Source: Candidatus Gastranaerophilales bacterium
Lineage (GTDB): Bacteria; Cyanobacteriota; Vampirovibrionia; Gastranaerophilales; Gastranaerophilaceae
DNA length: 64,000 nucleotides
Assembly: GCA_944324425.1 (NCBI GenBank)
Contig: CALUWE010000005.1
Span: forward strand, 1 to 64,000
Direction of reading: 5' to 3'
The position numbers and the translations under genes are program-made. A model generated the notes under the pieces. It had not been told where the DNA came from. It saw only the letters and a list, made by a program, of their open reading frames with translations, and did not search any database. Below, piece by piece: positions 5,251 to 21,952 of this stretch (position 1 is its first letter; every line of letters begins with the position of its first letter).

Positions 5251-6318
5251 ATGAAAATTACGGCCGTTGGGAGACCATTTTATAATTATCCCAAAAGTAA
5301 TGCGCCCGTAAATAAAAAAAGTTCATTATCCGTGCCAAAGTTTCAAGGCGCGGATATTTTTTGTTTTACGGGTAACTCCAATGCAAATTCAAAGGTATGC
5401 ATAGTTCCATCATCAAACCCGACAAATTTAGAACAGGGAATTAAACAAAAAACAGGAATTGACCCTGTTGATACCGTTGTTAAAAGTTTTAAAAACGGCG
5501 AAACTTATGTAAACATTGCGGGCAATATAAGGGGGAAAGATGTTTATTTGATGCCTGCGGGTGGCAACAGTGTAAATGACAATTTAATGGAAACTTACCT
5601 GAAAGCAGACGCCGCCAAAAGAGCAGGTGCTGACAGGGTAATTGCAATTATGCCAAATTTTGATTATGCAAGACAAGAAAAAAGAACGGAAAAAGGCGAA
5701 CCTATTGCTGCAAGATTAAATATGGACTTGTTAAAAACATCAGGAGTGGATGGAATAATAACGGTAGATATGCACACACCCGCACTTGAAGGTTTTGCGC
5801 CAAATGATATGAACGTGGTTCATCTTGAATCAATGGGATTAATGGTAGATTATATTAAATCAAAAGAAATCCCTGATTTAGTTGTGGTAAGCCCCGATTT
5901 GGGCGGTACAAAAAGAGCCGATAAATTGGCAAAAGCGCTTGAATGTGATAAGGCAATAGTTTATAAATCAAGAAAAGCCCATAATGAAGCAACAGCGGAA
6001 GATTTAATCGGCAATGTGGAAGGCAAAAACTGCATATTGTTTGACGATATCATTGATACTGCAGGCACTATTGCGGAAGCTTCAAAGTTATTAAAGAAAA
6101 AAGGCGCAAAAGATATTTACGTTTGTGCTGCCCATGGGCTTTTTAACGGCCAAGCAATGCAAAAATTGGACGATGCACCGATTAAAGAGGTTATTGTAAC
6201 AAACAGTGTACCTAATAAGCCGGATTCAATAGAAAAGATAAAACAAGTTGATTTATCGGGTCAGATAGTTGATGCCATGAAAGAAATTTCACCTGATATT
6301 GAAGCTGATGACAAATAA
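5251..6318 (+). CDS. prs: Ribose-phosphate pyrophosphokinase with extra N-terminal tag
   Basis: A 355-residue PRPP synthetase, making 5-phosphoribosyl-1-pyrophosphate from ribose-5-phosphate and ATP for nucleotide, histidine and tryptophan synthesis. Family motifs: FKNGETYVNI (near 90), the flexible-loop region DYARQEKR, MHTPALEGF, and the PRPP-binding loop FDDIIDTAGT near residue 270. The first 34 or so residues precede the usual family start and contain VPKFQG (F31-Q32-G33); this tail (MKITAV...PKFQG) resembles that of the unrelated protein at 21386-21952. GAAAGG lies upstream of the ATG. A bidirectional terminator follows. The enzymatic assignment is strong; the role of the tail is unknown. 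Confidence 0.94.
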   Translation: MKITAVGRPFYNYPKSNAPVNKKSSLSVPKFQGADIFCFTGNSNANSKVCIVPSSNPTNLEQGIKQKTGIDPVDTVVKSFKNGETYVNIAGNIRGKDVYLMPAGGNSVNDNLMETYLKADAAKRAGADRVIAIMPNFDYARQEKRTEKGEPIAARLNMDLLKTSGVDGIITVDMHTPALEGFAPNDMNVVHLESMGLMVDYIKSKEIPDLVVVSPDLGGTKRADKLAKALECDKAIVYKSRKAHNEATAEDLIGNVEGKNCILFDDIIDTAGTIAEASKLLKKKGAKDIYVCAAHGLFNGQAMQKLDDAPIKEVIVTNSVPNKPDSIEKIKQVDLSGQIVDAMKEISPDIEADDK

Positions 6319-6330
6319 GAAATTAATAAT

Positions 6331-6368
6331 TAAAGGGGCTTATTTTTAAATTTGAGCCCCTTTAATTT
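6331..6368. terminator. Bidirectional terminator between prs and the helicase-nuclease
   Basis: TAAAGGGGCT (6331-6340) pairs with AGCCCCTTTA (6354-6364), with a T-run on the plus side. The 3' arm contains the stop codon of the leftward gene ending at 6362. Confidence 0.8.
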
Positions 6369-9300
6369 TGATTATGCAACCTGCAAATTAACTTATAATT
6401 ACAGAACTTACAGTTGTCTTTATCTTTAATCGGTTCAAAATTAAGATTTTTTATATCGCTAACAGCTTTTCTTATTATCTCTTTGATTTCTTCATTATTA
6501 TCTGCAACATTTTCAATTCCTGATGATTTCAGCCCCTCTTCAAAAAATAACAATGCGCACTCGCCGACTTTTGAATTCGGGTTCAATTCTTCGTATAAAA
6601 ATTTATAGAATAAAAGCTGAATATAATATTCTTTCCTTTGTTTTAATGTTTTATGGCTGCCTGTTTTAAAGTCGAAAATACAAATATTGCCAAGATTATT
6701 TTTAGAAATTCTGTCTGCAAAGCCTTTTAAAATTGTTCCTTCAAAATTAAGCTCCATTCGATATTCGGTTTGCAAAATATTATTTGGGTTTGCTTCAATT
6801 AATTTCGGGAAATTTTCATCAATTGATTTTACCCCTCTTTTTTCAAATTCTTCTCTTTTTTCAGGGGTCGTAAATTCCATATCGTTCATTTTTTCTATAA
6901 ATTTATTCAGCATATCGTCTTTTTCGCCCCAAAAACCGTTTTTAATTGCGTTTTTGGTCATAAAATCAATGGCAAAGTGGATTGAAGAACCATAAGACAA
7001 GGTGTCTTTATCTTCAACATAAACGGGTACGCATAAAATGTTTGAATAAAAATATGAAAGAGGGCAATTTATGTATTGATTAAGGGTTGACTGGCTTAAA
7101 ACAATTTCATTTATTCTTTCTTGAATTTCTTTTTTATAGGAATTTTCGCTGAATTGAACGGTCAAATTTTTTATTGCTTCATTAATTTTGGAATCTAAAT
7201 CAAGCTCGTAAATTTTTTGTTCAATAAAGTTGTTGGCTTCGGGAAATAAATTTGTAATATATTTTGTTGCGCTTTGGGTGGCTCCGTCTGTTGCATTTGA
7301 GTAGCTTAAATAAAGCCCGAATTTTGCCCTTGTAATTCCTACAAATAAGAGCCTTAAAATTTCTGCGTCTTTGTTTTCGTCTTTGTCATTTGAAAATAAA
7401 GATTTTTCAATCGGTAAAGCTATTTCGGTGTTGCCTTGCGACATTTTTTCAAAGCTTTTTGCGGTTAAATTCGGCATAAAAACATATTCAAATTCTCTTC
7501 CTTTTGAACCGTGGTATGTTACAAGCTGAATAGCATCTTTTTTGCTGTCATCTTTTTTGAGTTCAATTTTAATATCTTGTTTTATATATGTATCTATGTG
7601 CGCTGTAAACTCATTTAAGGTTGCGTTTTTATGCAGAATTAAATATGATTTTGCTTCATCAATTAACCTTTGAATGGCTTGGATGTTTTCAAATTGTGTT
7701 TCATCTTTGATGTTTGAAAAATAGCTTAAAATGCCTGTTTTGCCTAAAACTTCATACAAAAAGGGCAACAGGGGTGTATACATTTTTTTAAGCTTTAATT
7801 CATTATAAGTTTTAAGAAAATTTTGAACTTCAATTGAATTTTTAAATTTTTCATTGTCTTCATCTTTTAAAATTTCATACCAATTTTTATCCGTTTTTCT
7901 TTGCTTATAAAGAAGTTCTGCTATAATTTCATCGTCAAATTTGAAGGGCGCATTTGTTAAAAGCGCAAAAAGTTTATCCTGTTCTAAATAAACATTTTCC
8001 AAAATTTTCAAATATGAGAAAAATGTTATAAAAGAAGGTATAAAAAGCGCATTTTTAGCTCTTGATAAAATATAGGGGATATTTTTTTGTTTCAAAAGCC
8101 TTGCGTATTCTTCCAATTTGTCATTTTTTCTTGTTATTATTGCAATTTCTTCTAATTTCGTCCCTTTTTGAATTAATTTTTCAATTTCTTCAATAATGAA
8201 GTTGTCCTCTTGAATGGTTTCTTGGAAAACATTGAATTTTATCTTCTCTTCTTTTTTGATAACATCTTCGTTTTTGGCAATTAATTTTTTGTCAACCATC
8301 TCACCATTATGGCTGTTTAATCTGAATTTATCTTTGCTTATTAAAATGTCTGAAAAATCAAGAATGGTTTGGGTTGAACGTCTGTTTTCATTTAATGAAA
8401 TAACGCTTGCATCCGGAAATTTTTCCAAAAAATCAACCAAATTGCGGCTTCTTGCCCCTTGGAAGGAATAAATTATTTGATCGTCATCCCCAACAACAAA
8501 AATATTTTCTTTTTTTGTTCCCCTCAAAAGGTTAAATATAAGTTCGTTTTGAACTTTGCTTGTATCTTGATATTCATCCACCAAGATATATTCAAGCCCT
8601 TTTGTTACTTTACAAAGAAAATCTTCGTCAGATTCAAGCTTTTCAATAACGAAATTAATCATATCCGAAAAATCAATCAAATTGTTTTCGTTTAATTTTC
8701 TTTTGTAAATTTCAAATATTGAATAAAATTCTTTTGCTTTACCCATCTTTTTTTCTTGATTTTCCAGCTTTTCAAGAAAAGTTTTCATAGGTTTTTTGTT
8801 TTCTTCTCTTTCAATTTTTTCTGCGTAGAGATTTTTTAACTTTTCGCCCCATTCAATATCTTCTTCAAGATATTTGAAATATTTTTCCTTTGTTGTTCTT
8901 TCTCTTTTAATTGTTTCAATTCCGCCTAAAATCTGACCTATAAAAAAATATTTATTTCCCCATTTGTCTTTTAAAAATTGAATTCCTTCTTTTTGGTCAA
9001 ATTCATCAATGCATTCTTTTAAAATTGCCTGTTTTGTAACATCATCCGCCATTTGAACGTTAGATGTCATCTCAAATTCTTCGGGGTATTGTTTTATAAT
9101 TTCATTACAAAAGCTATGATATGTGGAAATATTTACACCGCTTGCCTCAGGACCGATTTTTTCCACAAGTTTTACTTTCATTTGGTTTGATGCGGCATCG
9201 GAAAAAGTTAAGCATAAAATTGATTCGGGCTTAACCCCATTCGAGAGCATTTTTTCTATTCTTTTTGTTAAAGTGAAGGTTTTGCCTGTGCCGGGGCCAG

Positions 9301-9385
9301 CAAGCAGCATAACAGCGCCATCGATTTTGTTGATGGCAAGCTGCTGTTTATAATTAGGTTTAAAATTTTCTTTTGTTTGCTGCAC
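6362..9385 (-). CDS. UvrD/PcrA-like superfamily 1 helicase with C-terminal RecB/AddB-type nuclease
   Basis: A 1007-residue fusion. The helicase part carries Walker A GPGTGKT (near 30), Walker B LVDEYQDT, motif III GDDDQIIYSFQGA, motif V VTYHGSKGREFEYV and motif VI LLFVGITRAK. From about residue 760 a PD-(D/E)XK domain follows: LSQSTLNQYINCPLSYFYS, GSSIHFAIDF, and ICIFDFKTG with the catalytic D and K. One upstream Cys plus the terminal CKFCNYKLIC (CxxCx5C) match the iron-sulfur cysteine pattern of AddB-type nucleases. It probably processes double-strand DNA ends. The start is a GTG at 9385 sharing one base with the yebC stop (TAGTG), hence translationally coupled to yebC. No AddB/RecC partner is visible nearby. 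Confidence 0.9.
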   Translation of the reverse strand: MQQTKENFKPNYKQQLAINKIDGAVMLLAGPGTGKTFTLTKRIEKMLSNGVKPESILCLTFSDAASNQMKVKLVEKIGPEASGVNISTYHSFCNEIIKQYPEEFEMTSNVQMADDVTKQAILKECIDEFDQKEGIQFLKDKWGNKYFFIGQILGGIETIKRERTTKEKYFKYLEEDIEWGEKLKNLYAEKIEREENKKPMKTFLEKLENQEKKMGKAKEFYSIFEIYKRKLNENNLIDFSDMINFVIEKLESDEDFLCKVTKGLEYILVDEYQDTSKVQNELIFNLLRGTKKENIFVVGDDDQIIYSFQGARSRNLVDFLEKFPDASVISLNENRRSTQTILDFSDILISKDKFRLNSHNGEMVDKKLIAKNEDVIKKEEKIKFNVFQETIQEDNFIIEEIEKLIQKGTKLEEIAIITRKNDKLEEYARLLKQKNIPYILSRAKNALFIPSFITFFSYLKILENVYLEQDKLFALLTNAPFKFDDEIIAELLYKQRKTDKNWYEILKDEDNEKFKNSIEVQNFLKTYNELKLKKMYTPLLPFLYEVLGKTGILSYFSNIKDETQFENIQAIQRLIDEAKSYLILHKNATLNEFTAHIDTYIKQDIKIELKKDDSKKDAIQLVTYHGSKGREFEYVFMPNLTAKSFEKMSQGNTEIALPIEKSLFSNDKDENKDAEILRLLFVGITRAKFGLYLSYSNATDGATQSATKYITNLFPEANNFIEQKIYELDLDSKINEAIKNLTVQFSENSYKKEIQERINEIVLSQSTLNQYINCPLSYFYSNILCVPVYVEDKDTLSYGSSIHFAIDFMTKNAIKNGFWGEKDDMLNKFIEKMNDMEFTTPEKREEFEKRGVKSIDENFPKLIEANPNNILQTEYRMELNFEGTILKGFADRISKNNLGNICIFDFKTGSHKTLKQRKEYYIQLLFYKFLYEELNPNSKVGECALLFFEEGLKSSGIENVADNNEEIKEIIRKAVSDIKNLNFEPIKDKDNCKFCNYKLICRLHNQN

Positions 9386-10170
9386 TAAATGTTCACTTTT
9401 TCCATTATTTCATCATCAATGTCAAAATTAGAATAAACGTTTTGAACATCATCATGTTCTTCTAATTTTTCCATTAAAAGAAGAACTTTTCTTGCGGTTT
9501 CAGGGTCTGTAATTTCGGTTGAATTTGACGGAATTCTTGTATTTTCCGCCGTTTTTGCTTTGTAACCCAATTTTTCCAAGCCTTCCGTTGTCATTTGAAG
9601 ATTTTCCGTTGTTGTTACAACTTTAATTTCATCATCTTCTTCATAAACATCTTTTGGCTCAAATTCAAGGCTTGCTTCTAAAATTTCATCAAGCTCAATA
9701 ACTTTTGCCTTTTCTTTTTTATTTTCAGGTTCAATTACTTTATCAAAAGTAATAACACCGACAGGTTCAAATATCCAGCCAACGCAACCGTCAGCGCCCA
9801 AGTTGCCGCCAAATTTTGTGAAATAGCTTCTAATGTCGCCTGCGGTTCTGTTTCTGTTATCTGTTGCAGCTTCTATAAAAATAGCTGCACCGCCTGCAGA
9901 GTATCCTTCATAAGTTAATTCTTCGTAATTGTCTCCGCCAGCACCGCCTGCACCTTTTTCAATTGCACGTTTAATGTTATCGTTAGGCAATCCCCCTGCT
10001 TTTGCTTTATCGATTGCGGTTCTAAGCCTAAAGTTGCCCGCAGGGTCTCCCCCGCCCATTTTGGCTGCAATAATAATTTCTCTTGAAAATTTTGCAAAGT
10101 TTGCGCCGCGGAGTGCGTCTGTTTTTGCTTTTTTATGTTTAATGTTTGCCCATTTGGAATGTCCTGACAT
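9385..10170 (-). CDS. yebC: YebC/PmpR (TACO1) family protein
   Basis: 261 residues. The N-terminus MSGHSKWANIKHKKAKTDA and following GGGDPAGNFRLR are diagnostic of the YebC/PmpR family. Members were described as DNA-binding transcriptional regulators, and more recently linked to relieving ribosome stalling; which applies here cannot be seen. GGAAG lies 5 nt upstream of the ATG. It is the first gene of a leftward pair, with the helicase-nuclease starting on its stop codon. It is divergent from the TPR gene with only 41 bp between the two starts. Confidence 0.95.
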   Translation of the reverse strand: MSGHSKWANIKHKKAKTDALRGANFAKFSREIIIAAKMGGGDPAGNFRLRTAIDKAKAGGLPNDNIKRAIEKGAGGAGGDNYEELTYEGYSAGGAAIFIEAATDNRNRTAGDIRSYFTKFGGNLGADGCVGWIFEPVGVITFDKVIEPENKKEKAKVIELDEILEASLEFEPKDVYEEDDEIKVVTTTENLQMTTEGLEKLGYKAKTAENTRIPSNSTEITDPETARKVLLLMEKLEEHDDVQNVYSNFDIDDEIMEKVNI

Positions 10171-10199
10171 ATAATTCTTCCCTTTTTTACTTTTGATAC

Positions 10200-10205
10200 T
10201 ATAAT
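10200..10205 (+). promoter_or_regulatory. -10 box of the TPR gene, predicted leaderless
   Basis: A perfect TATAAT (10200-10205) ends 6 nt before the ATG at 10212. There is no Shine-Dalgarno, so transcription probably begins at the start codon. Confidence 0.55.
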
Positions 10206-10211
10206 TAAATC

Positions 10212-10724
10212 ATGGAAAAAAACAACGAGCAAGAAAAAAAACAGGCTAAAGTTCAGGAAAATGAACAAAATCAGCCTTTTATAGATAAAATTGAATTTGT
10301 AAGAGAATTAATTGCAGATTGCAGATTTGACGATGCTTTTGAAATTTTAGGCAGAATGGAAGAAGAAGAACCCGACAATTTTGAAGTAAACTATGAGCTT
10401 GCAAGGCTTCAATATGAAATGGGTGATTATTACAGTGCAATTGCAAATTATGAGGTGGTTTTAGAAAATCATCAAAGCCCGATTATTTTTTATAATTTGG
10501 GCTGCGCTTATGAAGCGAACGATGAACCCGATAAGGCGGTTTCAGCACACCTGAAAGCAATTACAATGAATGAAAATTTCCCTTATTCTTATAAAAAATT
10601 GGGAACCTTGTTTTTGGCGCGCGGCGACAAAACATCTGCTAAAGAATATTTTGAAGATTATATCAAGTTGGATATTGCGGATGATGAAAAAGAAAGTGTA
10701 AAACTTATATTGAACAGAATATAA
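10212..10724 (+). CDS. Tetratricopeptide-repeat protein
   Basis: 170 residues. After a Lys/Gln/Glu-rich N-terminal 20 residues there are about three TPR-like helical hairpins, for example NFEVNYELARLQYEMGDYYS, IIFYNLGCAYEANDEPDKA and YSYKKLGTLFLARGDKTSA. TPRs mediate protein-protein contacts; the partner is unknown. There is no signal peptide, so it is presumably cytoplasmic. It sits 13 bp upstream of a glutaredoxin gene and is likely cotranscribed with it. The start is supported by a -10 box spaced for leaderless transcription. Confidence 0.82.
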   Translation: MEKNNEQEKKQAKVQENEQNQPFIDKIEFVRELIADCRFDDAFEILGRMEEEEPDNFEVNYELARLQYEMGDYYSAIANYEVVLENHQSPIIFYNLGCAYEANDEPDKAVSAHLKAITMNENFPYSYKKLGTLFLARGDKTSAKEYFEDYIKLDIADDEKESVKLILNRI

Positions 10725-10737
10725 GGAACATTTTTTT

Positions 10738-10989
10738 ATGAATATTGAAATTTATACGCTGGATTATTGTCCTTTTTGCAAAAAAGCAAAAGCATTTTTT
10801 GATGAAAGAAATATCCCCTATATTGAATATAAATTGGATGGCGACGAAGAAGAAGAATTCAGAAAGCTGCAAAAAAAATTTAATATAAAAGGTGATGTTA
10901 CCGTTCCCCAAATTATAATAGACGGTAAAAGAATCGGCGGCTATTCGGATTTAATTGCGCTTTATGAGGCAGGTAAATTGAATTTTTAA
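10738..10989 (+). CDS. Glutaredoxin
   Basis: An 83-residue glutaredoxin with the redox motif CPFC near residue 12, the cis-proline strand VTVPQIIIDG near residue 60, and a C-terminal GGYSDLIALYEAGKL that matches the GSH-binding GG(Y)(D/S)D region. It reduces disulfides or glutathionylated proteins with glutathione or a substitute thiol; no glutathione synthesis gene is seen here. It is second in an operon with the TPR gene. Confidence 0.92.
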   Translation: MNIEIYTLDYCPFCKKAKAFFDERNIPYIEYKLDGDEEEEFRKLQKKFNIKGDVTVPQIIIDGKRIGGYSDLIALYEAGKLNF

Positions 10990-11075
10990 CTTTTGTAAAC
11001 ATTTTAATTAAAGTATTTAAGATTTTTCATTCTGAATCCGTAAGAGTTTATATAGATCAGATTCAAGGATGAACT

Positions 11076-11231
11076 ATGCTAAAAAAAGCAATTTTACCCA
11101 CTTCGAATAACTCAAGAGATATCATAATGATTATCCAAGGTGCCAAAAAACGCCGCATGATGGCGCATAGCACCGTTAAGGCTGTTAATACCGAGCTTGG
11201 TTTGAAGCCCGATTTGGCAACCGTTAAATAA
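11076..11231 (+). CDS. Possible 51-residue basic protein
   Basis: A short open frame starting ATG at 11076 with AAGG 7 nt upstream (11065-11068) and ending TAA at 11231. The product begins MLKKAILPTS, has a Lys/Arg patch AKKRRMMAHS and ends LKPDLATVK. I do not recognise it. It lies in a 373-bp gap (10990-11363) between the glutaredoxin gene and a coiled-coil gene that otherwise holds only short hairpins. The good ribosome-binding site and the non-AT-biased codons favour a real gene, but the length makes it uncertain. Confidence 0.45.
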   Translation: MLKKAILPTSNNSRDIIMIIQGAKKRRMMAHSTVKAVNTELGLKPDLATVK

Positions 11232-11300
11232 TTACACCCATAAAGCGCAAACCCCAAATACGCTTAAAAATTGAAAAAAGAGAAAATCGAACATACCAAG

Positions 11301-11340
11301 CAGGTTTTTTAGGCTATCGCTCAGGGAACCTGTTTTAGTT
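11301..11340 (+). terminator. Weak terminator-like hairpin
   Basis: CAGGTT (11301-11306) pairs with AACCTG (11327-11332) around a 20-nt loop, followed by TTTTAGTTTA. It could end the transcript carrying the 51-residue frame. Confidence 0.35.
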
Positions 11341-11363
11341 TAAAAAATAGAAAGGGAACAAAA

Positions 11364-11951
11364 ATGGGATATTGTTTTGAACTAACAAGAAAACTTCTTG
11401 AAATGAATGCTAACAAGGCTACTACGGAAGAGGCAAAAAAGCTCAACAAAGAGCTTACGGACGAATGCAAAGAAAAACTTGAAAAATATTCGATAAATAA
11501 ACCTCAAGAAAATAAAAAGCAAACCGAAGAAGACGAATGTATTGATTCAAACGAGCTTGTTGATGATATCAGAGAAGAGCTCGATAAATTGAAAAACGAA
11601 AAAGAACAGCTTGAAGAAGAGCTTGATGCCATTACTAAAGAAATCGCTGAGCTGCTGGATCAACTTAACGAATTGAAAGCTGAAAAGCAAGAAGAAGAAA
11701 AAGACTTGCAGGAAGAATTGGAAAAGCTCATGGAAAATATGAAAGCAATCGAAGAAAAACTGCAAAAAGGGAAAAAGGATAATGCCGAAAAAGGCGAATT
11801 GGATGAACAAAAAGCAGAAATATATGAAAACATTCAGAAAATCGCCGCTCAATTGCAGCAAATACAACAGGATATGCAATCAATGGATTCAGCTGGCGTC
11901 AACACGGATCAAAACACTGTAAACGATTCAAATGTAAACAAAAAAGAATAA
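11364..11951 (+). CDS. Coiled-coil protein of unknown function
   Basis: 195 residues with an almost uninterrupted Glu/Lys/Leu heptad pattern from about residue 60 to 170 (for example EQLEEELDAITKEIAELLDQ), preceded by a 50-residue region with MGYCFELTRKLLEMN and followed by an Asn/Ser/Asp-rich tail. No signal peptide or membrane segment. The ATG has a strong AAAGGG upstream. A clean bidirectional terminator follows immediately, so it is monocistronic. It is probably a structural or scaffolding protein; no specific function can be claimed. Confidence 0.72.
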   Translation: MGYCFELTRKLLEMNANKATTEEAKKLNKELTDECKEKLEKYSINKPQENKKQTEEDECIDSNELVDDIREELDKLKNEKEQLEEELDAITKEIAELLDQLNELKAEKQEEEKDLQEELEKLMENMKAIEEKLQKGKKDNAEKGELDEQKAEIYENIQKIAAQLQQIQQDMQSMDSAGVNTDQNTVNDSNVNKKE

Positions 11952-11952
11952 C

Positions 11953-11981
11953 AAAAAACCGAGCATATGCTCGGTTTTTTT
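11953..11981. terminator. Bidirectional terminator
   Basis: AAAAAACCGAGC and GCTCGGTTTTTT form a perfect hairpin around ATAT, with a T-run on both strands. It serves the coiled-coil gene and the leftward ftsB-like gene. Confidence 0.88.
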
Positions 11982-12453
11982 ACGGTAGAACAAAATCGGG
12001 ATTATTCTCCGAATCCGGATGAATAACCTTATTTACTATATTTTTTTCAAAGAAATCAATAAACTGTTCTTTTTTTGTTTTTGGTTTTTCTTCTTCATTT
12101 GGGGTGTTAATTATAACCAAAACCTCATTTTCGCCTGCCATTTTAAGGTTGTTTCTTGCGATGGATTCAACCCTGTTTGTGGAATTAAAATTATCAAGCT
12201 CGTTTTTTAATCTTTTATTTTTTTGCAGCGCAGCCTCTTTTAGTTCTCTTGCTTTAATAATTTTTCCTCTGTAAAAAACAATTTTGGATGTGTTTAAAAT
12301 GGCGCTGTATGTAATTTGAATAACACAAAGCAAAAGAACAATCGTCATAAAAGAAAGATAAACCTTGTTTTTTCTCATCTTCTTTTTTTGGATGGTTCTT
12401 GTTTTTTTTCTCAGATTATCGCCTGTTATTGTATCTTGATTTTCAAGTGCCAT
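11980..12453 (-). CDS. Septum-formation initiator (FtsB/DivIC-like) protein
   Basis: 157 residues: a basic cytoplasmic N-terminus (RKKTRTIQKKKMRKNK), one membrane helix near residues 32-52 (VYLSFMTIVLLLCVIQITYS), and an extracytoplasmic coiled coil (KARELKEAALQKNKRLKNEL) ending in the family-like VESIARNNLKMAGENEVLVI. This is the FtsB/DivIC topology; such proteins bridge FtsL and FtsQ/DivIB in the divisome. It follows dnaA but has its own -10 box spaced for a leaderless start. The FtsL-like gene is 30 kb away at 43581. Confidence 0.8.
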   Translation of the reverse strand: MALENQDTITGDNLRKKTRTIQKKKMRKNKVYLSFMTIVLLLCVIQITYSAILNTSKIVFYRGKIIKARELKEAALQKNKRLKNELDNFNSTNRVESIARNNLKMAGENEVLVIINTPNEEEKPKTKKEQFIDFFEKNIVNKVIHPDSENNPDFVLP

Positions 12454-12460
12454 AGATTTA

Positions 12461-12466
12461 ATTTTA
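12461..12466 (-). promoter_or_regulatory. -10 box of the FtsB/DivIC-like gene
   Basis: TAAAAT on the minus strand ends 7 nt before the ATG at 12453, with no Shine-Dalgarno sequence. A near-leaderless geometry. Confidence 0.4.
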
Positions 12467-12490
12467 CTCTTTTTTGTTTAATTGTACAAA

Positions 12491-13912: not shown

Positions 13913-14013
13913 CCTTTCTTCTTAACAATTTTACTATAAAAAGTTATTGTAGTAATATAAGATTAAATTTTGTTAAACCTACACCTTGGGGAATTACCGT
14001 TAAGAGAATTTTA

Positions 14014-15135: not shown

Positions 15136-17760
15136 ATGAAAATAATCAGAATATTTTTATTGTTCGGTATATTTATTTTGTTTAACACAACGGCTTTTGG
15201 CGCCGATTATGTGGCTAAAAAACTTGAATCAGGGCAATTGGTTGTTGTGTATGAAATGAAAGACAATCCTATTGTTACAATTAATACTTGGGTTAAAACG
15301 GGCTCAATAAATGAAGATGATACAAATACAGGCGTCGCGCATTTTTTGGAACACCTTTTCTTTAAGGGTTCGGAAAATGTTCCTTCAGGTGAATTTGATA
15401 AAATTTTAGAATCAAAAGGTGCCATTACAAATGCGGCTACCAGCAAAGATTACACTCAATTTTACATAACAATACCTTCCAAAGATTTTGATACTGCTCT
15501 TAAATTGCACTCTGATATGCTTTTAAGACCTTTAATCCCAAGAAAAGAGCTTGAAAAAGAAAGGCTTGTTGTTATTGAAGAAATTTCAAGAGGGTTAGAC
15601 AACCCAACATCTGTCATGTATGAAAACCTTTTTAAATTGGTCTATTCTCCGGAGATTAACAATCACCCTTATAAAAGACCTGTTATAGGTACAAAAGAGG
15701 TTATTTCATCAATTTCAAGAGAAAATATTTTGGAATTTTACAATAAATGGTATACGCCTGATAATATGATTACAATTATCTCGGGCGACATTGATCCTGA
15801 TTATGCAATTAAACAGGTGGCGCAAGCTTTTTCAAGACCGATTACAAAAAATGTCAAAAATTCTTATCCTGCTTTAAATAAAATCACAAAACCGGCCAAA
15901 GTTAATAAAACCATGGATGTTGCACAAGGATATATGGCAATAGGCTTTAGGGCGCCAAAGTTTGAAGACAATAAAGAGGCTTATGCTTTGGATGTTCTTG
16001 CCGTTATATTGGGCGGTTCCAACAGTTCAATTTTAAATACAGAATTAAAAGAAAAGAAACAATTGGTTAATTCAATTTCGGCTTCATATTCACAATATAT
16101 GGATGACGGCCTTTTTATAATATCTTCAACTTATAAGCCGGCTAAAATTTCTTTGGTGGAAAAAGAAATATTTGATGAAATTCAAAAAATTAAACAAGGC
16201 TCAATTACAAAAGAAGATGTTCAAAAAGCCAAAAACATGATAAAAACTTCCACATATTACAGCAGAGAATCTGCGGCAAACATTGCAAATGAACTCGGAT
16301 TTTTTACATTGTATTTCAACACTCCCAAAATGTATGACAAATATTTAAAAAGAATTGACAGGGTTTCTGTTAAGGATGTTGTAAATGCCGCAAACAAATA
16401 TTTATTAAAAGAACAATCGGCAACATCAACCGTAATGCCCGAAAAAACATCTTATGTTGAAATTTCGGACATTCAGCAAATGGCGGCAGCCGCAAAGATA
16501 ATTCCCGATACCGCAAAAATTTTGGAATCAAACAAAAATGAAACAAAATATCTTTTGGATAACGGCGCAACCTTAATTGTAAGAAAGAATAAGCAAAATT
16601 CCATAATTGCTCTTGATATAAATGCAAAGGGCGGCTCATTCCTTGAAAGTTCCCCCGGAACCGCCTATCTTGCAGCTGCTAATGCAAAGAGGGGCACCAA
16701 ATCATTCAGCTTTGATGAAATGAACGATTTTCTTGATGAAAACGGGATAAAGCTTTCGCTTTCGGCTAATCCCGATGCTTTCAACATTTCTATGTTGACT
16801 ACAAAAAACAGGCTTGATGAAGCTTTTATGGTGCTGAATGAAGTTGTTAATTACCCTTCTTTTACGACAACTGAAATTGACAAAACAAGAAAACATTATA
16901 AAGAGTATGTAAATTCTCTGAAAGACAGGTCTTTGGCGCTTGCCATGGACAGATTTTCGGGGCTTTCATATAAGGGTTATCCTTATGCAAACAATTCCGA
17001 AATTGTTTTGCCCTTGATTGATAAAATTTCAAGGGAAGAAATTGTTAAATTTTACAGTAATATATTGGATTCTAAAAACCTTGTCATAGCAATCACGGGC
17101 GATGTTGATGATAATGATATGATAAAAGAATTCAATAAAATATTTGAAGATAAGGGGCAAAAGAAAGTTGAAATTAAAGAATTCAACAGAACAAGTTTTG
17201 TTCCGAGCGAAAATATTTCTAAGAAAATATCTTCAGACAAAGAAACAACTTGGATTGTTTTGGGATACAAAACTCCTTCCGTATACGATATTAAAGATAT
17301 AGCTACACTAAGGGTTATTGATTCGGTTTTGGGAACAGGCATGAGCTCCCGTTTGTTTAAATCTTTAAGAGAAAACCAAGGCCTTGCATATCAGGTTGGC
17401 ACAAATATTAACCAATATGCAAACGACTCTTCATTTTTTGCCTATATAGGAACTAATTTCAAAAATGAACAAAAGGCAATAGAAGGCATTTTGGCAGAGT
17501 TTCACAAATTAAAAACAGAATTTATTCCGAATAAAGAATTAACTGAAGCGAAAGAAAAGCTTTTGGGCAACATGACAATTTCTATTGAAACCAACATGGA
17601 CAGAAGCAGCCTGCTTTCAAAATATAGTGCATACGGCTACGATATTAATTTTCTTGAAAACTTGAAGAGTGCAATAAATAACGTTACATCGAGCGATATT
17701 TTGACATTTGCAAATAAATATTTTAACAGCCCGTATATATCTGTTATTGTCGGAAAATAA
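15136..17760 (+). CDS. Exported M16 family zinc peptidase (two-lobe)
   Basis: 874 residues. An N-terminal signal peptide (hydrophobic to about residue 20, NTTAFGADY near the cleavage site) sends it to the periplasm or outer face. The first M16 lobe has the inverted zinc motif HFLEH near 72, with the distal ligand in VIEEISR about 75 residues later. The second lobe, from about 450, lacks HxxEH but has the partner-lobe RENQGLAYQVG region. This is the PqqL/insulinase architecture that degrades or trims peptides. It starts directly after the stop of the radical SAM gene, suggesting a joint role. Downstream lies an EF-hand gene preceded by a large hairpin. Confidence 0.92.
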   Translation: MKIIRIFLLFGIFILFNTTAFGADYVAKKLESGQLVVVYEMKDNPIVTINTWVKTGSINEDDTNTGVAHFLEHLFFKGSENVPSGEFDKILESKGAITNAATSKDYTQFYITIPSKDFDTALKLHSDMLLRPLIPRKELEKERLVVIEEISRGLDNPTSVMYENLFKLVYSPEINNHPYKRPVIGTKEVISSISRENILEFYNKWYTPDNMITIISGDIDPDYAIKQVAQAFSRPITKNVKNSYPALNKITKPAKVNKTMDVAQGYMAIGFRAPKFEDNKEAYALDVLAVILGGSNSSILNTELKEKKQLVNSISASYSQYMDDGLFIISSTYKPAKISLVEKEIFDEIQKIKQGSITKEDVQKAKNMIKTSTYYSRESAANIANELGFFTLYFNTPKMYDKYLKRIDRVSVKDVVNAANKYLLKEQSATSTVMPEKTSYVEISDIQQMAAAAKIIPDTAKILESNKNETKYLLDNGATLIVRKNKQNSIIALDINAKGGSFLESSPGTAYLAAANAKRGTKSFSFDEMNDFLDENGIKLSLSANPDAFNISMLTTKNRLDEAFMVLNEVVNYPSFTTTEIDKTRKHYKEYVNSLKDRSLALAMDRFSGLSYKGYPYANNSEIVLPLIDKISREEIVKFYSNILDSKNLVIAITGDVDDNDMIKEFNKIFEDKGQKKVEIKEFNRTSFVPSENISKKISSDKETTWIVLGYKTPSVYDIKDIATLRVIDSVLGTGMSSRLFKSLRENQGLAYQVGTNINQYANDSSFFAYIGTNFKNEQKAIEGILAEFHKLKTEFIPNKELTEAKEKLLGNMTISIETNMDRSSLLSKYSAYGYDINFLENLKSAINNVTSSDILTFANKYFNSPYISVIVGK

Positions 17761-17786
17761 TTATCATTCATTTATATGTTTTACTT

Positions 17787-17836
17787 TTTAATTCCTGTCA
17801 TTAAACTTATAAATAAGTTAGGAAACAGGAATTAAA
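17787..17836 (+). promoter_or_regulatory. 50-bp nested inverted repeat covering the ribosome-binding site
   Basis: The outer arms TTTAATTCCTGT (17787-17798) and ACAGGAATTAAA (17825-17836) are a perfect 12-bp inverted repeat. The inner arms AACTTAT (17804-17810) and ATAAGTT (17813-17819) are a perfect 7-bp repeat. Two 5-nt stretches form a symmetric internal loop. The AGGAA and AGGA elements that serve as Shine-Dalgarno for the ATG at 17840 lie within this structure. It could be an RNA fold controlling translation, or a dyad operator. Confidence 0.6.
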
Positions 17837-17839
17837 TTT

Positions 17840-18385
17840 ATGACTAATAGGATTAGCGGAAATTCACTTTTTGCACAGGCTGCATCAGGTTTAAATTCAA
17901 GTTTTTACTACCTTTCTTTATTGTCAGGTTCTACAAACGGTTTAACTTTGGATAATATCTTGCATCCTGATACCAAAAACTCGGGTGCAAGTGCTATATA
18001 TTTAAACTCAACTTTTGCTCAATATCTTGCAAAAAACTTTAATTATATTGATATGGATGGCGACGGCACTATTACTCAATCTGATATTACAAATTACAGC
18101 ACTCAATTGTATGGCACAGGGCTAACTTATGCTCAATTATCGCAATTGTGCGCACAAGGCGGTTCAGGTTCACTTTATGAAACTGTTTTAAATAATTTTC
18201 AGCAAATAGATGCTAACCACGACGGCAGAGTTACAAGTGCCGAAATTTCGGCTTATGGTATTAATCAGGAAAAAGAAGAAATGGAAAGTAAATATCCTAA
18301 ATATGACTTAAAGGGTATGTCAATTTTCCATGATACAACAACTTCAACCACAAGCAGTGAAGCAACGGAAACAGAAAAAGTTTAA
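17840..18385 (+). CDS. EF-hand calcium-binding protein
   Basis: 181 residues with two canonical 12-residue EF-hand loops: DMDGDGTITQSD (71-82, Asp instead of Glu at position 12) and DANHDGRVTSAE (124-135). The N-terminal 60 residues are Ser/Leu/Asn-rich with no classical signal peptide; the C-terminus is Thr/Ser-rich. A pair of EF-hands separated by about 40 residues resembles a calmodulin-like lobe or a dockerin-like element, but spacing and flanks do not match dockerin. Location and partners are unknown. It lies 80 bp after the M16 protease gene but has its own structured leader. Calcium binding is a strong inference from the loops. Confidence 0.82.
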   Translation: MTNRISGNSLFAQAASGLNSSFYYLSLLSGSTNGLTLDNILHPDTKNSGASAIYLNSTFAQYLAKNFNYIDMDGDGTITQSDITNYSTQLYGTGLTYAQLSQLCAQGGSGSLYETVLNNFQQIDANHDGRVTSAEISAYGINQEKEEMESKYPKYDLKGMSIFHDTTTSTTSSEATETEKV

Positions 18386-18387
18386 CT

Positions 18388-18918
18388 TTAGGTTTTTATG
18401 AAATCTAATTTACAACGACCATAAACCTTTTCTCTAAAGGGTGCAGATATTTTGCCGTAAATTCGGGAAAATTCCTGCATTCTTTTTTTATCGTATTCAA
18501 TAACCATAATTGAATCTTTAAATTTTTCAAAAACTTTTATGATTGCTTTTTCATAATCGGTTTCCCAAGGAGGATCTATATAAATTACATCGGGCTTAAT
18601 ATCAAGATTTTCAATAATTTTGATTGAGTCTCCCTTAATTATTTCAAAGCCGCTTTTTGCTATTTTTAGGTTTTCTTTTATTATTTTTATTGCACTGAAA
18701 TTTTTATCAATTGAAACAGTTTTAAAACCTCTTGACAAGGCTTCTAAACTCATAATGCCCGAGCCTGCATATAAATCAAGAAAAATTTTGTTTTCAAAAT
18801 CTCCTAAAATCGAATACAAAACATTAAAAACACTTTCTCTTGTTTTTGAAAGTGTTGGTTTTGCACAGTTTGGCGTAATAACTTTTACACCTTTATATTG
18901 CCCGCCTGTAACATGCAA
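18388..18918 (-). CDS. rsmD: 16S rRNA (guanine966-N2)-methyltransferase
   Basis: 176 residues, the family length. Motifs: the N-terminal VTGGQYKGVKV, the TRESVFNVLYS helix, the SAM-binding DLYAGSGIMSLEALSRG near residue 60, and the catalytic DPPW near residue 118. It methylates G966 of 16S rRNA during 30S assembly. It converges on the EF-hand gene with 2 bp between stops and is divergent from the flavoprotein gene. Confidence 0.93.
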   Translation of the reverse strand: MHVTGGQYKGVKVITPNCAKPTLSKTRESVFNVLYSILGDFENKIFLDLYAGSGIMSLEALSRGFKTVSIDKNFSAIKIIKENLKIAKSGFEIIKGDSIKIIENLDIKPDVIYIDPPWETDYEKAIIKVFEKFKDSIMVIEYDKKRMQEFSRIYGKISAPFREKVYGRCKLDFIKT

Positions 18919-18950
18919 TTTTTTACTCCTTAATTTATATTCAATTTATC

Positions 18951-20315
18951 ATGAAAAAAATTGTAATTATAGGCGGCTGCGCGGCTGGCCCAAAAGCTGC
19001 GTCAAAATGTAAAAGAATTAACCCTGAAAATATTGTGGAATTATACACATTGGAAAATATGGTTTCATATTCCGCTTGCGGTATGCCTTATTTTATAGGC
19101 GGTATTGTCCCAAATGTTAACAATCTGCTTGTAAGAAGTCCTGAAGAATTCAAAAAAATGAGCATAGATGTATTTTTAAACCATAAATGCACAAAAATTA
19201 ATCCTGATAAAAAAACGGTTGTTTTTAACAATGATAAAGAAGTCAAATATGATGATTTAATTTTGTGTATCGGCTCAAATCCTTATATTCCGAATATAAA
19301 AAACTATAATCTAAAAAATGTTTTTAATCTTAAAGTTATTCAAGACGGTATTGATATTAAAAATTTGGCAACGGTTTCAAAATCTGCAGTTTTAATTGGT
19401 GCAGGATATATTGCGCTTGAGCTCTTAGAAGCATTTGTCAGAAACGATATTAAAGTTACAATAATCGAAAAATCTTCAAGAATAATACCTGTTTTTGACG
19501 ATGAAATATCCGATGAAATAAAACGGGAAATTTTAAATAATTCCAAAGGGCTTGTTGAATTTATCAATAACGATGAAGTTATTGAATTTTTAGGAAATGA
19601 AAAATTTGAAGGCGTTATTACAAAAAACGGCTCTAAAATTTATGCCGATTTTTGCGTTGTTGCGGCAGGTGTTAAGCCCAATGTTGATATTGCACGCGAA
19701 GCCGGAATTGAAATCGGTGTAACGGGTGCAATTAAAGTGGATAATAAAATGCGGACATCAATTGAAAATATCTGGGCGGCAGGCGATTGCACGGAAGATA
19801 TTTTTATTCCCACAAAACAATCTGTTTATAGAGCATTGGGGACAATTGCATATAAACAAGGGCGAGTTGCCGCAATTAATGTAAATTCTGATTTTACGGG
19901 TATTACAGAGCAATTTGACGGAATTTTAGGCTCAATGGTAACAAAATATTTTGATTATTCAATTGCTCTGACGGGTTTAAGTGAAAGTTCGGCCAATGAA
20001 CTGACAAATTATTTTAACATTACCCCAATTTCAGCCACTGTTGAAGAATATGATAAAGCGGGGTATATGCCAAAAATCGGCACTTTGAAGGTTAAATTGA
20101 CTGCCGATAAAAGAACAGGTGAAATTTTGGGTGCTCAAGCAATAGGGACAGGAGATACTGACAAAAGAATAAGTGTTGTTGCTTCCGCTCTTCGTGCAAA
20201 CCTTACCATAAATGAATTTCTTCATTTGGATTTGCCTTATTCTCCGCCTTTTTCATCTACAATTGACCCCTTGTTGACAGCTGCATATAAACTTAAACAA
20301 ATGATTGATTCTTAA
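18951..20315 (+). CDS. CoA-disulfide reductase / NADH oxidase-like flavoprotein
   Basis: 454 residues of the pyridine nucleotide-disulfide oxidoreductase class with a single redox cysteine. The FAD-binding VIIGGCAAG is at the N-terminus, SYSACGMPYFIGG places the active Cys at residue 43 as in CoA-disulfide reductases, AVLIGAGYIALEL is the NAD(P)H site, and IWAAGDCTED is the second FAD motif. A dimerisation domain follows from about 330. It reduces CoA disulfide or persulfide, or oxygen, with NAD(P)H; the substrates cannot be separated by sequence inspection. The start has no Shine-Dalgarno. Confidence 0.88.
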   Translation: MKKIVIIGGCAAGPKAASKCKRINPENIVELYTLENMVSYSACGMPYFIGGIVPNVNNLLVRSPEEFKKMSIDVFLNHKCTKINPDKKTVVFNNDKEVKYDDLILCIGSNPYIPNIKNYNLKNVFNLKVIQDGIDIKNLATVSKSAVLIGAGYIALELLEAFVRNDIKVTIIEKSSRIIPVFDDEISDEIKREILNNSKGLVEFINNDEVIEFLGNEKFEGVITKNGSKIYADFCVVAAGVKPNVDIAREAGIEIGVTGAIKVDNKMRTSIENIWAAGDCTEDIFIPTKQSVYRALGTIAYKQGRVAAINVNSDFTGITEQFDGILGSMVTKYFDYSIALTGLSESSANELTNYFNITPISATVEEYDKAGYMPKIGTLKVKLTADKRTGEILGAQAIGTGDTDKRISVVASALRANLTINEFLHLDLPYSPPFSSTIDPLLTAAYKLKQMIDS

Positions 20316-20348
20316 ATATTTTAACCACCGTATAAAGGAATTCTTTAT

Positions 20349-20837
20349 TTGAATAACCTAGAAAAAAAGCAAATTATATATAATATTCTTAAAACAAACG
20401 GAATCATTCGGGAAAATGAAAAAGAAGCCGATTTTATTGTCAGCGATATTTTTCTTAAATCTGCAATGTTTTTGGATGTTTTCGAAGATGAAAATGAAGT
20501 GTATAATTATTTACAAGATTTTATTAACAGTTTAATTCAAAGAGATTCGAAAGAACCCGATATGACGGAAAATATTTTAAAAGACAACATAGATTCAATT
20601 AAAGACCCAAGAACAATTATTTTTGATATAACGGATGAAAGCAAATATATACGAAAAATATTAAAAAGGCTTGCCGAATTAGACAGAGTTAAGCCGAATA
20701 AAAAATATATTTCCATATTTTACAGAAAATATATTAAAGGTGTTTCTTTTGAGCAAGTGGCGCATGAGCTCAATATTTCGGATAAAGAACTCAAAGACAG
20801 AATTTTTGACATAGTTAAGTTTGTCTCAAAAGACTGA
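20349..20837 (+). CDS. Unknown protein with sigma region 4-like helix-turn-helix C-terminus
   Basis: 162 residues from a TTG at 20349 with AAAGGA 8 nt upstream. Residues 1-110 are acidic, helical and unrecognised. The last 40 residues (SIFYRKYIKGVSFEQVAHEL then NISDKELKDRIFDIVKFV) read like the HTH of sigma-70 region 4 or a SatD/YlxM-type regulator, but no region 2 is present, so it is not a sigma factor. It may bind DNA. It probably shares a transcript with the upstream flavoprotein (33 bp gap). Confidence 0.65.
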   Translation: MNNLEKKQIIYNILKTNGIIRENEKEADFIVSDIFLKSAMFLDVFEDENEVYNYLQDFINSLIQRDSKEPDMTENILKDNIDSIKDPRTIIFDITDESKYIRKILKRLAELDRVKPNKKYISIFYRKYIKGVSFEQVAHELNISDKELKDRIFDIVKFVSKD

Positions 20838-20840
20838 AGA

Positions 20841-21389
20841 TTAAATCGTAAGAGAGCTTGAATGAGGCATACTTTTTGTAAAATTAATGTATGACTGCAT
20901 ATTTAAAGGTTGTTTTGCTCTGAAATTCGGATATGTTCTGCCGTCATATATTTCAGGCGGTGGCGGTGTCAGATTTTTCTTTTCCATTATTTTTTTAATA
21001 ACAACGCTTGATTTATTTCTTAAAATAGGTGTGATTATATTGCTTGAAATAACCCCGCCTGCAATTGCCGCAAGGGTTCTTGCGCCTTCTACGGCCTGCT
21101 TGTTGTCAGGAAAACGTTTGCCTGCCAGTCTGCTTGCCATGTTCATAATCGGAATTGTAACGGCAGCATAAGTTGCAATGTTAAATGTGCCGTCCATAAT
21201 TTCCTGCGGAACAAGGAATTTTTTTTCTTCTTTTCCGATATCTTTATTGGCAATTAGCCCTATTGTTTGTGCCATTGAGGCCAAAGCCCATCCGATGGCG
21301 GCAGATATAAATAAGAAATTGCCGTTGTTTTTAACGCTTTGTTTTAAGAATTTTCCGCCCGCTTTGGCTGTGTTTTCTAAAATGTTCAT
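20841..21389 (-). CDS. Unknown membrane protein, partner of the upstream gene
   Basis: 182 residues with three hydrophobic stretches: near 27-48 (FLFISAAIGWALASMAQTIG), 68-88 (NIATYAAVTIPIMNMASRLA) and 104-122 (LAAIAGGVISSNIITPIL). The middle part LIANKDIGKEE parallels LTNKDVDKDT in the neighbour 21386-21952, and both end in a hydrophobic helix followed by a K-rich K(I/M)xEK segment, so the two appear distantly paralogous. They overlap by 4 bp (ATGA), hence are coupled and probably form a complex. The C-terminal tail is Pro-rich and soluble. No known family is recognised. Confidence 0.7.
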   Translation of the reverse strand: MNILENTAKAGGKFLKQSVKNNGNFLFISAAIGWALASMAQTIGLIANKDIGKEEKKFLVPQEIMDGTFNIATYAAVTIPIMNMASRLAGKRFPDNKQAVEGARTLAAIAGGVISSNIITPILRNKSSVVIKKIMEKKNLTPPPPEIYDGRTYPNFRAKQPLNMQSYINFTKSMPHSSSLTI

Positions 21390-21952
21390 TTAACAACCTC
21401 CGTATTTTGCGGCACGGTTTGATTATCTGTATTTTCAGGGTCTTTCTCGTATTTTTCGTTCATCTTGTTTGTAAGCCAGTTTGTAACAGGCGCATCAATC
21501 AAGAAGTTCGTTGCAAGCATAACGCCCAGTGCTGTAATTGTTCCTATAACGGCTGCATATTTTTTTGCGCCGCCTTGGTTTTTTATAAAATCTTTTGATT
21601 TTTCAATGGCTTCTTCCGAGAAATTTTCTGCGGTATATTTTGCAATTGAATTGGTAAATTTTTCGTTTTCAAATGCTTTTTCAACGACTTTCATGCAGCC
21701 GCCTCTGATTGCAATGCCGGTAGCGGCACCTACAAGGCCTTTTGCAAAGCTTCTGTTGGCTGAAATTCTTCTTGTGTCTTTGTCTACATCTTTATTTGTA
21801 AGGTCAATAATAGGCTGAAAAGTAATTGCGGCAAGGCCCAAAGCCGTTCTTTGCTGCCAGCTGTTAATGTTTGCCGCTTTAGATAAAAGACTTCCTGCAT
21901 TAAATCCTTTAAAATTTGGTGTCGAATAATTTTGTACAGGTGAAATTTTCAA
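21386..21952 (-). CDS. Unknown membrane protein with N-terminal PxFxG tag
   Basis: 188 residues if translation starts at TTG 21952, which has AAGAAGG upstream; the longer ATG form (to 22006) has no such site. The N-terminus is then MKISPVQNY...TPNFKGF, resembling the extra tail of the PRPP synthetase in this window. Two hydrophobic segments follow (LVGAATGIAIRGG and IGTITALGVMLATNFLI), with the conserved-looking TNKDVDKDTRRI between helices. It ends in an Asn/Asp/Gln-rich tail and overlaps the next gene by 4 bp. Unrecognised family. Confidence 0.7.
   Translation of the reverse strand: MKISPVQNYSTPNFKGFNAGSLLSKAANINSWQQRTALGLAAITFQPIIDLTNKDVDKDTRRISANRSFAKGLVGAATGIAIRGGCMKVVEKAFENEKFTNSIAKYTAENFSEEAIEKSKDFIKNQGGAKKYAAVIGTITALGVMLATNFLIDAPVTNWLTNKMNEKYEKDPENTDNQTVPQNTEVVK

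What the first reader, a model, noticed from the sequence alone, without database searches (positions are those of the whole stretch)
5251..21952. Shared N-terminal MKI...PxFxG tag on a cytosolic enzyme and a membrane protein
The PRPP synthetase has about 34 extra N-terminal residues beginning MKITAV and ending VPKFQG. The unrelated membrane protein at 21386-21952 (start TTG 21952) begins MKISPV and has TPNFKG at residues 11-16. A third protein (34873-36429) has SPSFTGG before a membrane segment at residue 209. An Asn/Ser/Pro-rich spacer followed by F-[KQT]-G looks like a short sorting, docking or processing tag rather than part of either fold.
Basis: partly seen in the sequence, partly recalled or inferred. 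Interest (0 to 1): 0.68.

Follow-up and report, generated by a model that had tools for sequence, protein, structure and literature searches.

The report
Shared N-terminal tag in gut Gastranaerophilales
Dozens of unrelated proteins of a gut bacterium (a non-photosynthetic cousin of cyanobacteria) start with the same kind of short, floppy two-part address label, which suggests an undescribed protein-sorting or secretion route in this group; where the label sends its proteins has not been shown.

Summary
The window is from Candidatus Gastranaerophilales. A bipartite N-terminal tag, roughly M-[KNR]-[IV]-x-[PS]-[IV] … Asn/Ser/Pro-rich, acid-poor spacer of 0-45 residues … [IVLP]-[SNPT]-F-x-[GA], sits on unrelated proteins. 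A motif model trained on four families finds it on others at 10 observed against 0.35 expected (442 genes). I estimate 3-5% of proteins carry it. It is conserved at protein level in orthologues while the spacer drifts, and is disordered in the predicted Prs model.

The tagged Prs, GH77 and FtsH-like proteins are accessory paralogues; their housekeeping copies are untagged. In Prs the conserved end is FCF(K/T)G, not VPKFQG. The third protein (34873-36429) does not fit.

Microcompartment and Sec-type signals are excluded. My favoured but unproven reading is an order-specific targeting signal for a type III export apparatus. That apparatus is universal in the order (29/29 genomes), distinct from the flagellar one, and no paper found describes it as a secretion system. 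Tag composition, moderate transmembrane hydrophobicity and Chlamydia precedents fit; lack of gene clustering and housekeeping-type enzymes argue against. The main rival is an intracellular docking tag.

The parts
5251..6318 (+). Accessory, tagged ribose-phosphate pyrophosphokinase (Prs), 355 aa
   Evidence: ORF; Pfam Prs domains from residue 51; 46% identical to the untagged housekeeping Prs at G000:C2:135634-136500
5251..5373 (+). N-terminal tag of Prs, residues 1-41: MKITAV ... (VPKFQG, not conserved) ... ADIFCFTG (conserved end)
   Evidence: alignment of 15-16 Gastranaerophilales orthologues; pLDDT about 30 over residues 1-40
5359..5373 (+). Conserved terminal element FCFTG of the Prs tag (residues 37-41)
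   Evidence: FCFKG/FCFKS/FSFKG in the same-type orthologues; short orthologue reads MKIQPTFAG then the same fold
21386..21952 (-). Tagged predicted membrane/helical protein, 188 aa, TTG start
   Evidence: ORF; orthologues in 26 of 29 relatives; all-helical low-confidence model
21905..21952 (-). N-terminal tag MKISPVQNYSTPNFKG (residues 1-16)
   Evidence: conserved in nine same-genus copies with synonymous codon changes; most orthologues from other genera lack it
20841..21389 (-). Downstream overlapping ORF (182 aa, MNILENTAKAGG...), probable operon partner; starts MNI but has no FxG element
   Evidence: no convincing relation to the 188-aa family
34873..36429 (+).

Best explanation
The tag is an order-specific N-terminal targeting signal: a disordered, acid-poor, Asn/Ser/Pro-rich leader with a short hydrophobic start (M-K-I-x-x-V/I) and a Phe-Gly anchor, read by a dedicated receptor. 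The most likely receptor is the conserved type III export apparatus that is distinct from the flagellum (a FlhA-like gate component, FliP-Q-R, FliI, FliF, FliE and rod proteins, plus a stand-alone FlhA-C-like protein), which would dock the tag and export the protein unfolded. Shown: the tag, its recurrence, conservation, disorder and composition, and the presence and conservation of the apparatus. Inferred: that the tag is a targeting signal at all, that the apparatus reads it, and that export takes place.
For: Recurrence beyond chance in an out-of-family test and in shuffles. Both ends conserved with a drifting spacer in accessory FtsH-like, Prs, GH77 and 188-aa families. Tag disordered in the Prs model. 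Composition of 31 tags: D+E 4% against 14% in other polar N-termini (p=9e-13), Leu 3.6% against 8.8%, Asn, Ser, Pro about doubled; this resembles published type III effector N-termini (Ser, Thr, Pro enriched; Leu and acidic residues depleted; PMC2669295), although Thr is not enriched here. A two-signal N-terminal arrangement, hydrophobic extreme N-terminus plus a downstream motif, is known for flagellar export substrates (PMC8983047). Apparatus: FHIPEP in 29/29 and FliP in 29/29 order members; the second FHIPEP is 81% identical between families f1 and f7 and only 37% to the flagellar FlhA, separate clade in the tree. Tag seen in families f1, f6, f7 and sporadically f4, not in f8 of another order. 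Tagged proteins with TM-like stretches are less hydrophobic than other membrane proteins (0 of 33 above KD 2.2 against 19%; p=0.005 among those above 1.6), as I recall (from memory) for type III exported membrane proteins. Cargo includes a FHA-calpain-like protease, a weak ADP-ribosyltransferase-like match, and glycogen-type enzymes; Chlamydia GlgA is secreted into the host cell (PMC3722199).
Against: No physical or genetic link between tag and apparatus was found: tagged genes are not enriched next to its genes (p=0.16) and share no detectable promoter. Published type III signals are degenerate, whereas this tag has a fixed F-x-G. Rod proteins and FliE, the expected substrates, do not carry it in a conserved form. 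Cargo includes ATP-using, intracellular-type enzymes (Prs, FtsH-like AAA protease, DSHCT helicase) that make little sense outside a cell. Family f8 has a related FHIPEP but no tag. The f8 comparison rests on few genomes.
Confidence: 0.38

Rival explanations
1. The tag is an intracellular docking motif: a short linear peptide that brings accessory paralogues and small membrane proteins to one cytosolic scaffold, membrane site or adaptor, without export.
For: Tagged proteins are mostly cytosolic enzyme types and membrane proteins without Sec signals (0 of 33 with a hydrophobic N-terminal stretch against 29%). Accessory copies of Prs, FtsH and GH77 are tagged while the housekeeping copies are not, as expected if the tag relocates a second copy. 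A fixed F-x-G anchor is typical of docking motifs (general knowledge).
Against: No scaffold identified; microcompartment shell proteins absent from all 29 genomes. The extreme acid depletion is more usual for export or transit peptides than for cytosolic tails.
Confidence: 0.33
2. The tag is a regulatory or processing element, for example an N-terminal degron or propeptide cut after F-x-G.
For: Position just before the fold; a tagged calpain-like protease and a tagged FtsH-like protease exist in the same genome.
Against: No cleavage data; residue after G is not conserved. The N-terminal MKI part is also conserved, which cleavage at G would not need.
Confidence: 0.12
3. The similarity is chance or composition: AT-rich genomes favour ATG-AAA-ATT starts, and F-x-G is common.
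For: M.I starts alone associate only weakly with F-x-G (odds ratio 1.85, p=0.04).
Against: Shuffles and internal stretches do not reproduce it; conserved across orthologues with synonymous codon changes; composition strongly different from other N-termini.
Confidence: 0.03
4. The tagged genes form one regulon and the tag is a by-product of a shared translation-initiation or promoter region.
For: An A-tract/T-tract plus G-rich step and TTTT pattern precedes 8 of 27 tagged against 15 of 375 other genes (p=4e-5, pattern chosen after looking).
Against: A de novo motif search on tagged upstream regions scores no better than on random sets of upstream regions; start codons differ (ATG, TTG, GTG); the conserved F-x-G lies up to 50 codons inside the gene.
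Confidence: 0.04

Closest known systems
Type III secretion / flagellar export N-terminal signals
   Same: Extreme N-terminal, disordered, Ser/Asn/Pro-rich, acid- and Leu-poor; two elements (hydrophobic start plus downstream motif) as in early flagellar subunits (PMC8983047, PMC2669295); a conserved type III export apparatus is present.
   Different: Fixed conserved M-K-I start and F-x-G end instead of a degenerate signal; rod substrates lack it; secretion not shown; no clustering with apparatus genes.
Bacterial microcompartment encapsulation peptides
   Same: Short terminal peptides joined by a disordered linker to unrelated enzymes.
   Different: No BMC shell protein in any of 29 genomes; Prs tag predicted disordered rather than helical.
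Sec/Tat/lipoprotein signal peptides
   Same: N-terminal, often one basic residue after Met.
   Different: No hydrophobic core in 33 of 33 tagged proteins.
Secretion of Chlamydia glycogen synthase GlgA (PMC3722199)
   Same: GlgA-like, GH77 (MalQ-like) and amylase-like enzymes are among the tagged proteins.
   Different: Chlamydia enzymes carry no such shared motif as far as I know (from memory); here the tested one, GH77, is an accessory paralogue.
Plastid/cyanelle transit peptides with an N-terminal Phe motif (from memory, not tested)
   Same: Acid-poor N-terminal leader with an essential Phe, in descendants of relatives of this lineage.
   Different: No organelle; no Omp85-type receptor examined here.

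Membership tests
Type III secretion signal | A type III export apparatus is encoded in the genome | tested here: met
   FHIPEP and FliP in 29/29; FliE, FliF, FliH, FliI, FliQ/R-like ORFs and FlgB/FlgC/FlgG in G000
Type III secretion signal | N-terminal, disordered, Ser/Thr/Pro-rich, Leu- and acid-depleted | tested here: met
   reference composition. Thr is not enriched
Type III secretion signal | Substrate genes enriched near apparatus genes | tested here: not met
   p=0.16; not a strict requirement for effectors
Type III secretion signal | Directs secretion through the apparatus | not testable with these tools
   needs an experiment; for this reason it is not filed as a member
Type III secretion signal | Flagellar gate recognition motif | not tested
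   tag ends F-x-G, often followed by a hydrophobic residue; no formal comparison made
Bacterial microcompartment encapsulation peptide | BMC shell proteins (PF00936) present | tested here: not met
   0 of 29 genomes, controls ring
Sec/Tat signal peptide | Hydrophobic N-terminal core | tested here: not met
   0 of 33 tagged proteins with a 9-residue stretch above KD 2.2 in the first 40, against 29%
Contractile injection system cargo signal | Phage-sheath-type genes present | tested here: inconclusive
   PF04984 below cut-off in G000 (24.5 of 31.4 bits), above cut-off in only 7 of 29 genomes
Curated sorting-signal or tag models in NCBIfam/Pfam | A model covers the tag | tested here: not met
   no match covering the tag that passes a cut-off in the tagged proteins scanned

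The most novel reading that the evidence does not exclude
Gut Gastranaerophilales, relatives of cyanobacteria, use a conserved type III apparatus distinct from the flagellum to deliver some 50-90 proteins marked by a fixed N-terminal tag, among them glycogen enzymes, a calpain-like protease and nucleotide enzymes, into other cells or to the cell surface.
Probability: 0.25. Interest if true: 0.92.

Novelty: new variant of a known kind. Interest (0 to 1): 0.66.

Why it matters
A recognisable tag on several percent of a proteome is a handle on cell biology in a lineage whose gut members are known almost entirely from metagenome-assembled genomes. It groups many uncharacterised proteins and may explain why accessory copies of housekeeping enzymes exist. 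If it is an export signal, gut relatives of cyanobacteria would have a type III secretion route that earlier work read as incomplete flagellar gene sets. Either way the motif gives a direct, testable bait for finding the receptor.

Tried and rejected
Microcompartment targeting (no BMC shell in 29 genomes). Sec-type signals. Contractile injection systems as carrier (only patchy sheath hits). Shared promoter or regulon: a post hoc A/T-tract pattern looked enriched but a de novo motif search did no better than on random upstream sets. Clustering of tagged genes around the type III genes (p=0.16). Relation of the 34873-36429 and 20841-21389 proteins to the 188-aa family (none convincing). The fold of the 188-aa protein: model mean pLDDT 66, too weak for a fold search. 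A PDB sequence search with the 1418-aa tagged protein gave nothing. The whole genome was not available as a file, so statistics rest on stretches covering roughly half of the genome; the unbiased set uses 29 stretches of contigs C1-C7 chosen by position. The gene finder was home-made (longest ORF, simple start choice), so some starts may be wrong. Literature searches found no paper on such a motif or on type III secretion in this group; only open-licence papers are held.

Full report
Origin. The window lies in a 1.84 Mb metagenome-assembled genome (G000, 98% complete; window G+C 33%). Named relatives are Candidatus Gastranaerophilales from animal guts.

What is in the window. Prs (5251-6318) has about 45 residues before its fold. 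It is not the housekeeping enzyme: that one lies at C2:135634-136500, is 46% identical and has no tag. Only some same-genus relatives carry the accessory Prs, and in the genome-wide scan matches that include the tag come only from Gastranaerophilales or unnamed gut bacteria close to them. The active-site residues of Prs look kept (alignment; judged from knowledge of the family). The 188-aa protein (21386-21952) is helical, probably membrane-bound, and starts MKISPVQNYSTPNFKG from a conserved TTG.

Correction of the motif. In the Prs orthologues VPKFQG is mostly replaced by SAPKSQG and similar, while the MKI start, the YPKS stretch and ADIFCF(K/T)G stay. More distant orthologues have shortened versions, MKIQPTFAG followed directly by the fold, and a degenerate MRTNPIAAGINNASFSFTS. 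So the tag is two short elements with a spacer that can nearly vanish.

Extent. In sampled stretches of G000 many unrelated proteins carry the tag, for example MKISNVAFNNSYFKPAFRG, MKISPANNNYPFHPNNSDSLSFKG, MNISPFNYTSPVFKG, MKINKVSNLSFNG, MKITNNFVGNIENYSTKDNKPSNQINFTG. A DNA pattern for the tag hits 52 times against 14 for its reversed control in G000; part of that excess comes from other motifs such as M16 peptidases, so it is only indicative. Most family f1 genomes also show more hits than control; the three genomes of family f8 (same class) do not. The clean test: a position matrix from the Prs, GH77, FtsH-like and 188-aa families, scored on 442 other G000 genes from stretches chosen by position, gave at score 12 or more 10 hits against 0.35 in shuffled N-termini and 1 in internal stretches; at least one of the 10 looks like a false hit. 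At lower scores the excess suggests 3-5% of proteins (estimate). In small samples of other genomes the same kind of model finds convincing tags in families f1, f6 and f7, weaker ones in f4, and none beyond chance in f8.

Conservation. Accessory FtsH-like orthologues read MKINPI...ISFEG (twice), MKVNSI...INFTG, MRVNPV...VPFTG, MKVNSI...ITFRG, MRISPV...IPFCG, with unrelated spacers, and DINFKG or ITFTG in other families of the order. GH77 orthologues read MKLGAVTGF..SPAFGR, MKINPIGSTTAFGR, MKVNSINNYGAYSPSFQR. Codons of the conserved residues vary synonymously, so selection acts on protein. Housekeeping FtsH starts with a transmembrane segment and housekeeping-type GH77 has no tag. The 188-aa family has the tag within the genus but mostly not in other genera, so tags are gained or lost.

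Cargo. Matches in tagged proteins: Prs, CheR-type methyltransferase, AAA plus M41 protease, AAA ATPase, FHA plus calpain-like protease, HD domain (weak), ADP-ribosyltransferase-like (weak), starch/glycogen synthase, GH77, amylase-like (weak), DEAD/DSHCT helicase; more than half have no family.

Nature of the tag. In Prs it is predicted disordered. Across 31 tags D+E is 4% and Leu 3.6%, with Asn, Ser, Pro about doubled. No tagged protein has a Sec-like N-terminus; TM-like stretches in tagged proteins are of moderate hydrophobicity.

A possible receptor. FHIPEP (FlhA/SctV family) and FliP occur in all 29 order members tested. Some members have two full-length FHIPEP copies, one of them of the flagellar type. 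The copy common to all is 81% identical between G000 and G033 of another family, but G000's copy is 37% identical to G033's flagellar FlhA, and it forms its own clade. G000 holds fliE, fliF, fliH, this FHIPEP, fliI, fliP with fliQ- and fliR-like ORFs, flgB, flgC and two flgG-like genes, on several contigs, plus a stand-alone FlhA C-domain protein. Earlier work reported incomplete flagellar gene sets in six of nine Gastranaerophilales and read them as loss (PMC4040986; see also PMC3787301). The high conservation and separate clade suggest a distinct working machine. Its coexistence with the tag within the order is consistent with a link but proves nothing.

Mechanism. I favour export by this apparatus at 0.38 over intracellular docking at 0.33. 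The first rests on composition, two-part layout, hydrophobicity and cargo precedents; the second on the enzyme types and the fixed F-x-G anchor. That the tag exists as a conserved protein feature I hold at about 0.95.

Novelty. No matching description was found in the held papers or in the curated Pfam and NCBIfam models. N-terminal tags as such are known, so I rate it a new variant of a known kind.

Noticed in passing
L251:12705-19584, L074:11355-14143, L095:15065-16306, L090:4924-7151 (G000): A conserved type III export gene set distinct from the flagellar one; FHIPEP and FliP in all 29 Gastranaerophilales tested. Earlier work read such sets as incomplete flagella.
   Followed up: partly
L254:8173-9537 (G000:C9): Stand-alone FlhA C-terminal-domain protein (454 aa) in 26 of 29 order members, not seen in three f8 genomes; in G033 it lies next to flgE-, flgD-, fliK- and fliJ-like genes. 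Candidate substrate-docking factor.
   Followed up: partly
L072:15310-16779: Tagged protein with FHA domain and calpain-like C2 cysteine protease domain, a eukaryote-like combination.
   Followed up: no
L066:9692-12751: Tagged 1019-aa AAA plus M41 protease: an FtsH-like protein without the N-terminal membrane anchor.
   Followed up: partly
L155:11149-11616 and 11639-12115 (family f4): Two adjacent small ORFs starting MIKGITPAPNFTG and MIKRVTPLPSFTG, a tag variant in another family of the order.
   Followed up: no
window 21386-21952 and eight orthologues: TTG start codon conserved in all nine same-genus copies of the 188-aa protein.
   Followed up: no
upstream of several tagged genes, for example L068:10395, L094:608, L081:3537: A-tract/T-tract followed by a G-rich step and TTTT before the start; 8 of 27 tagged against 15 of 375 others with a post hoc pattern.
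   Followed up: partly
G000:C7:51779-52207: Weak phage-sheath-like match (24.5 bits, below cut-off), found as a 364-368-aa frame in most of the genus.
   Followed up: no
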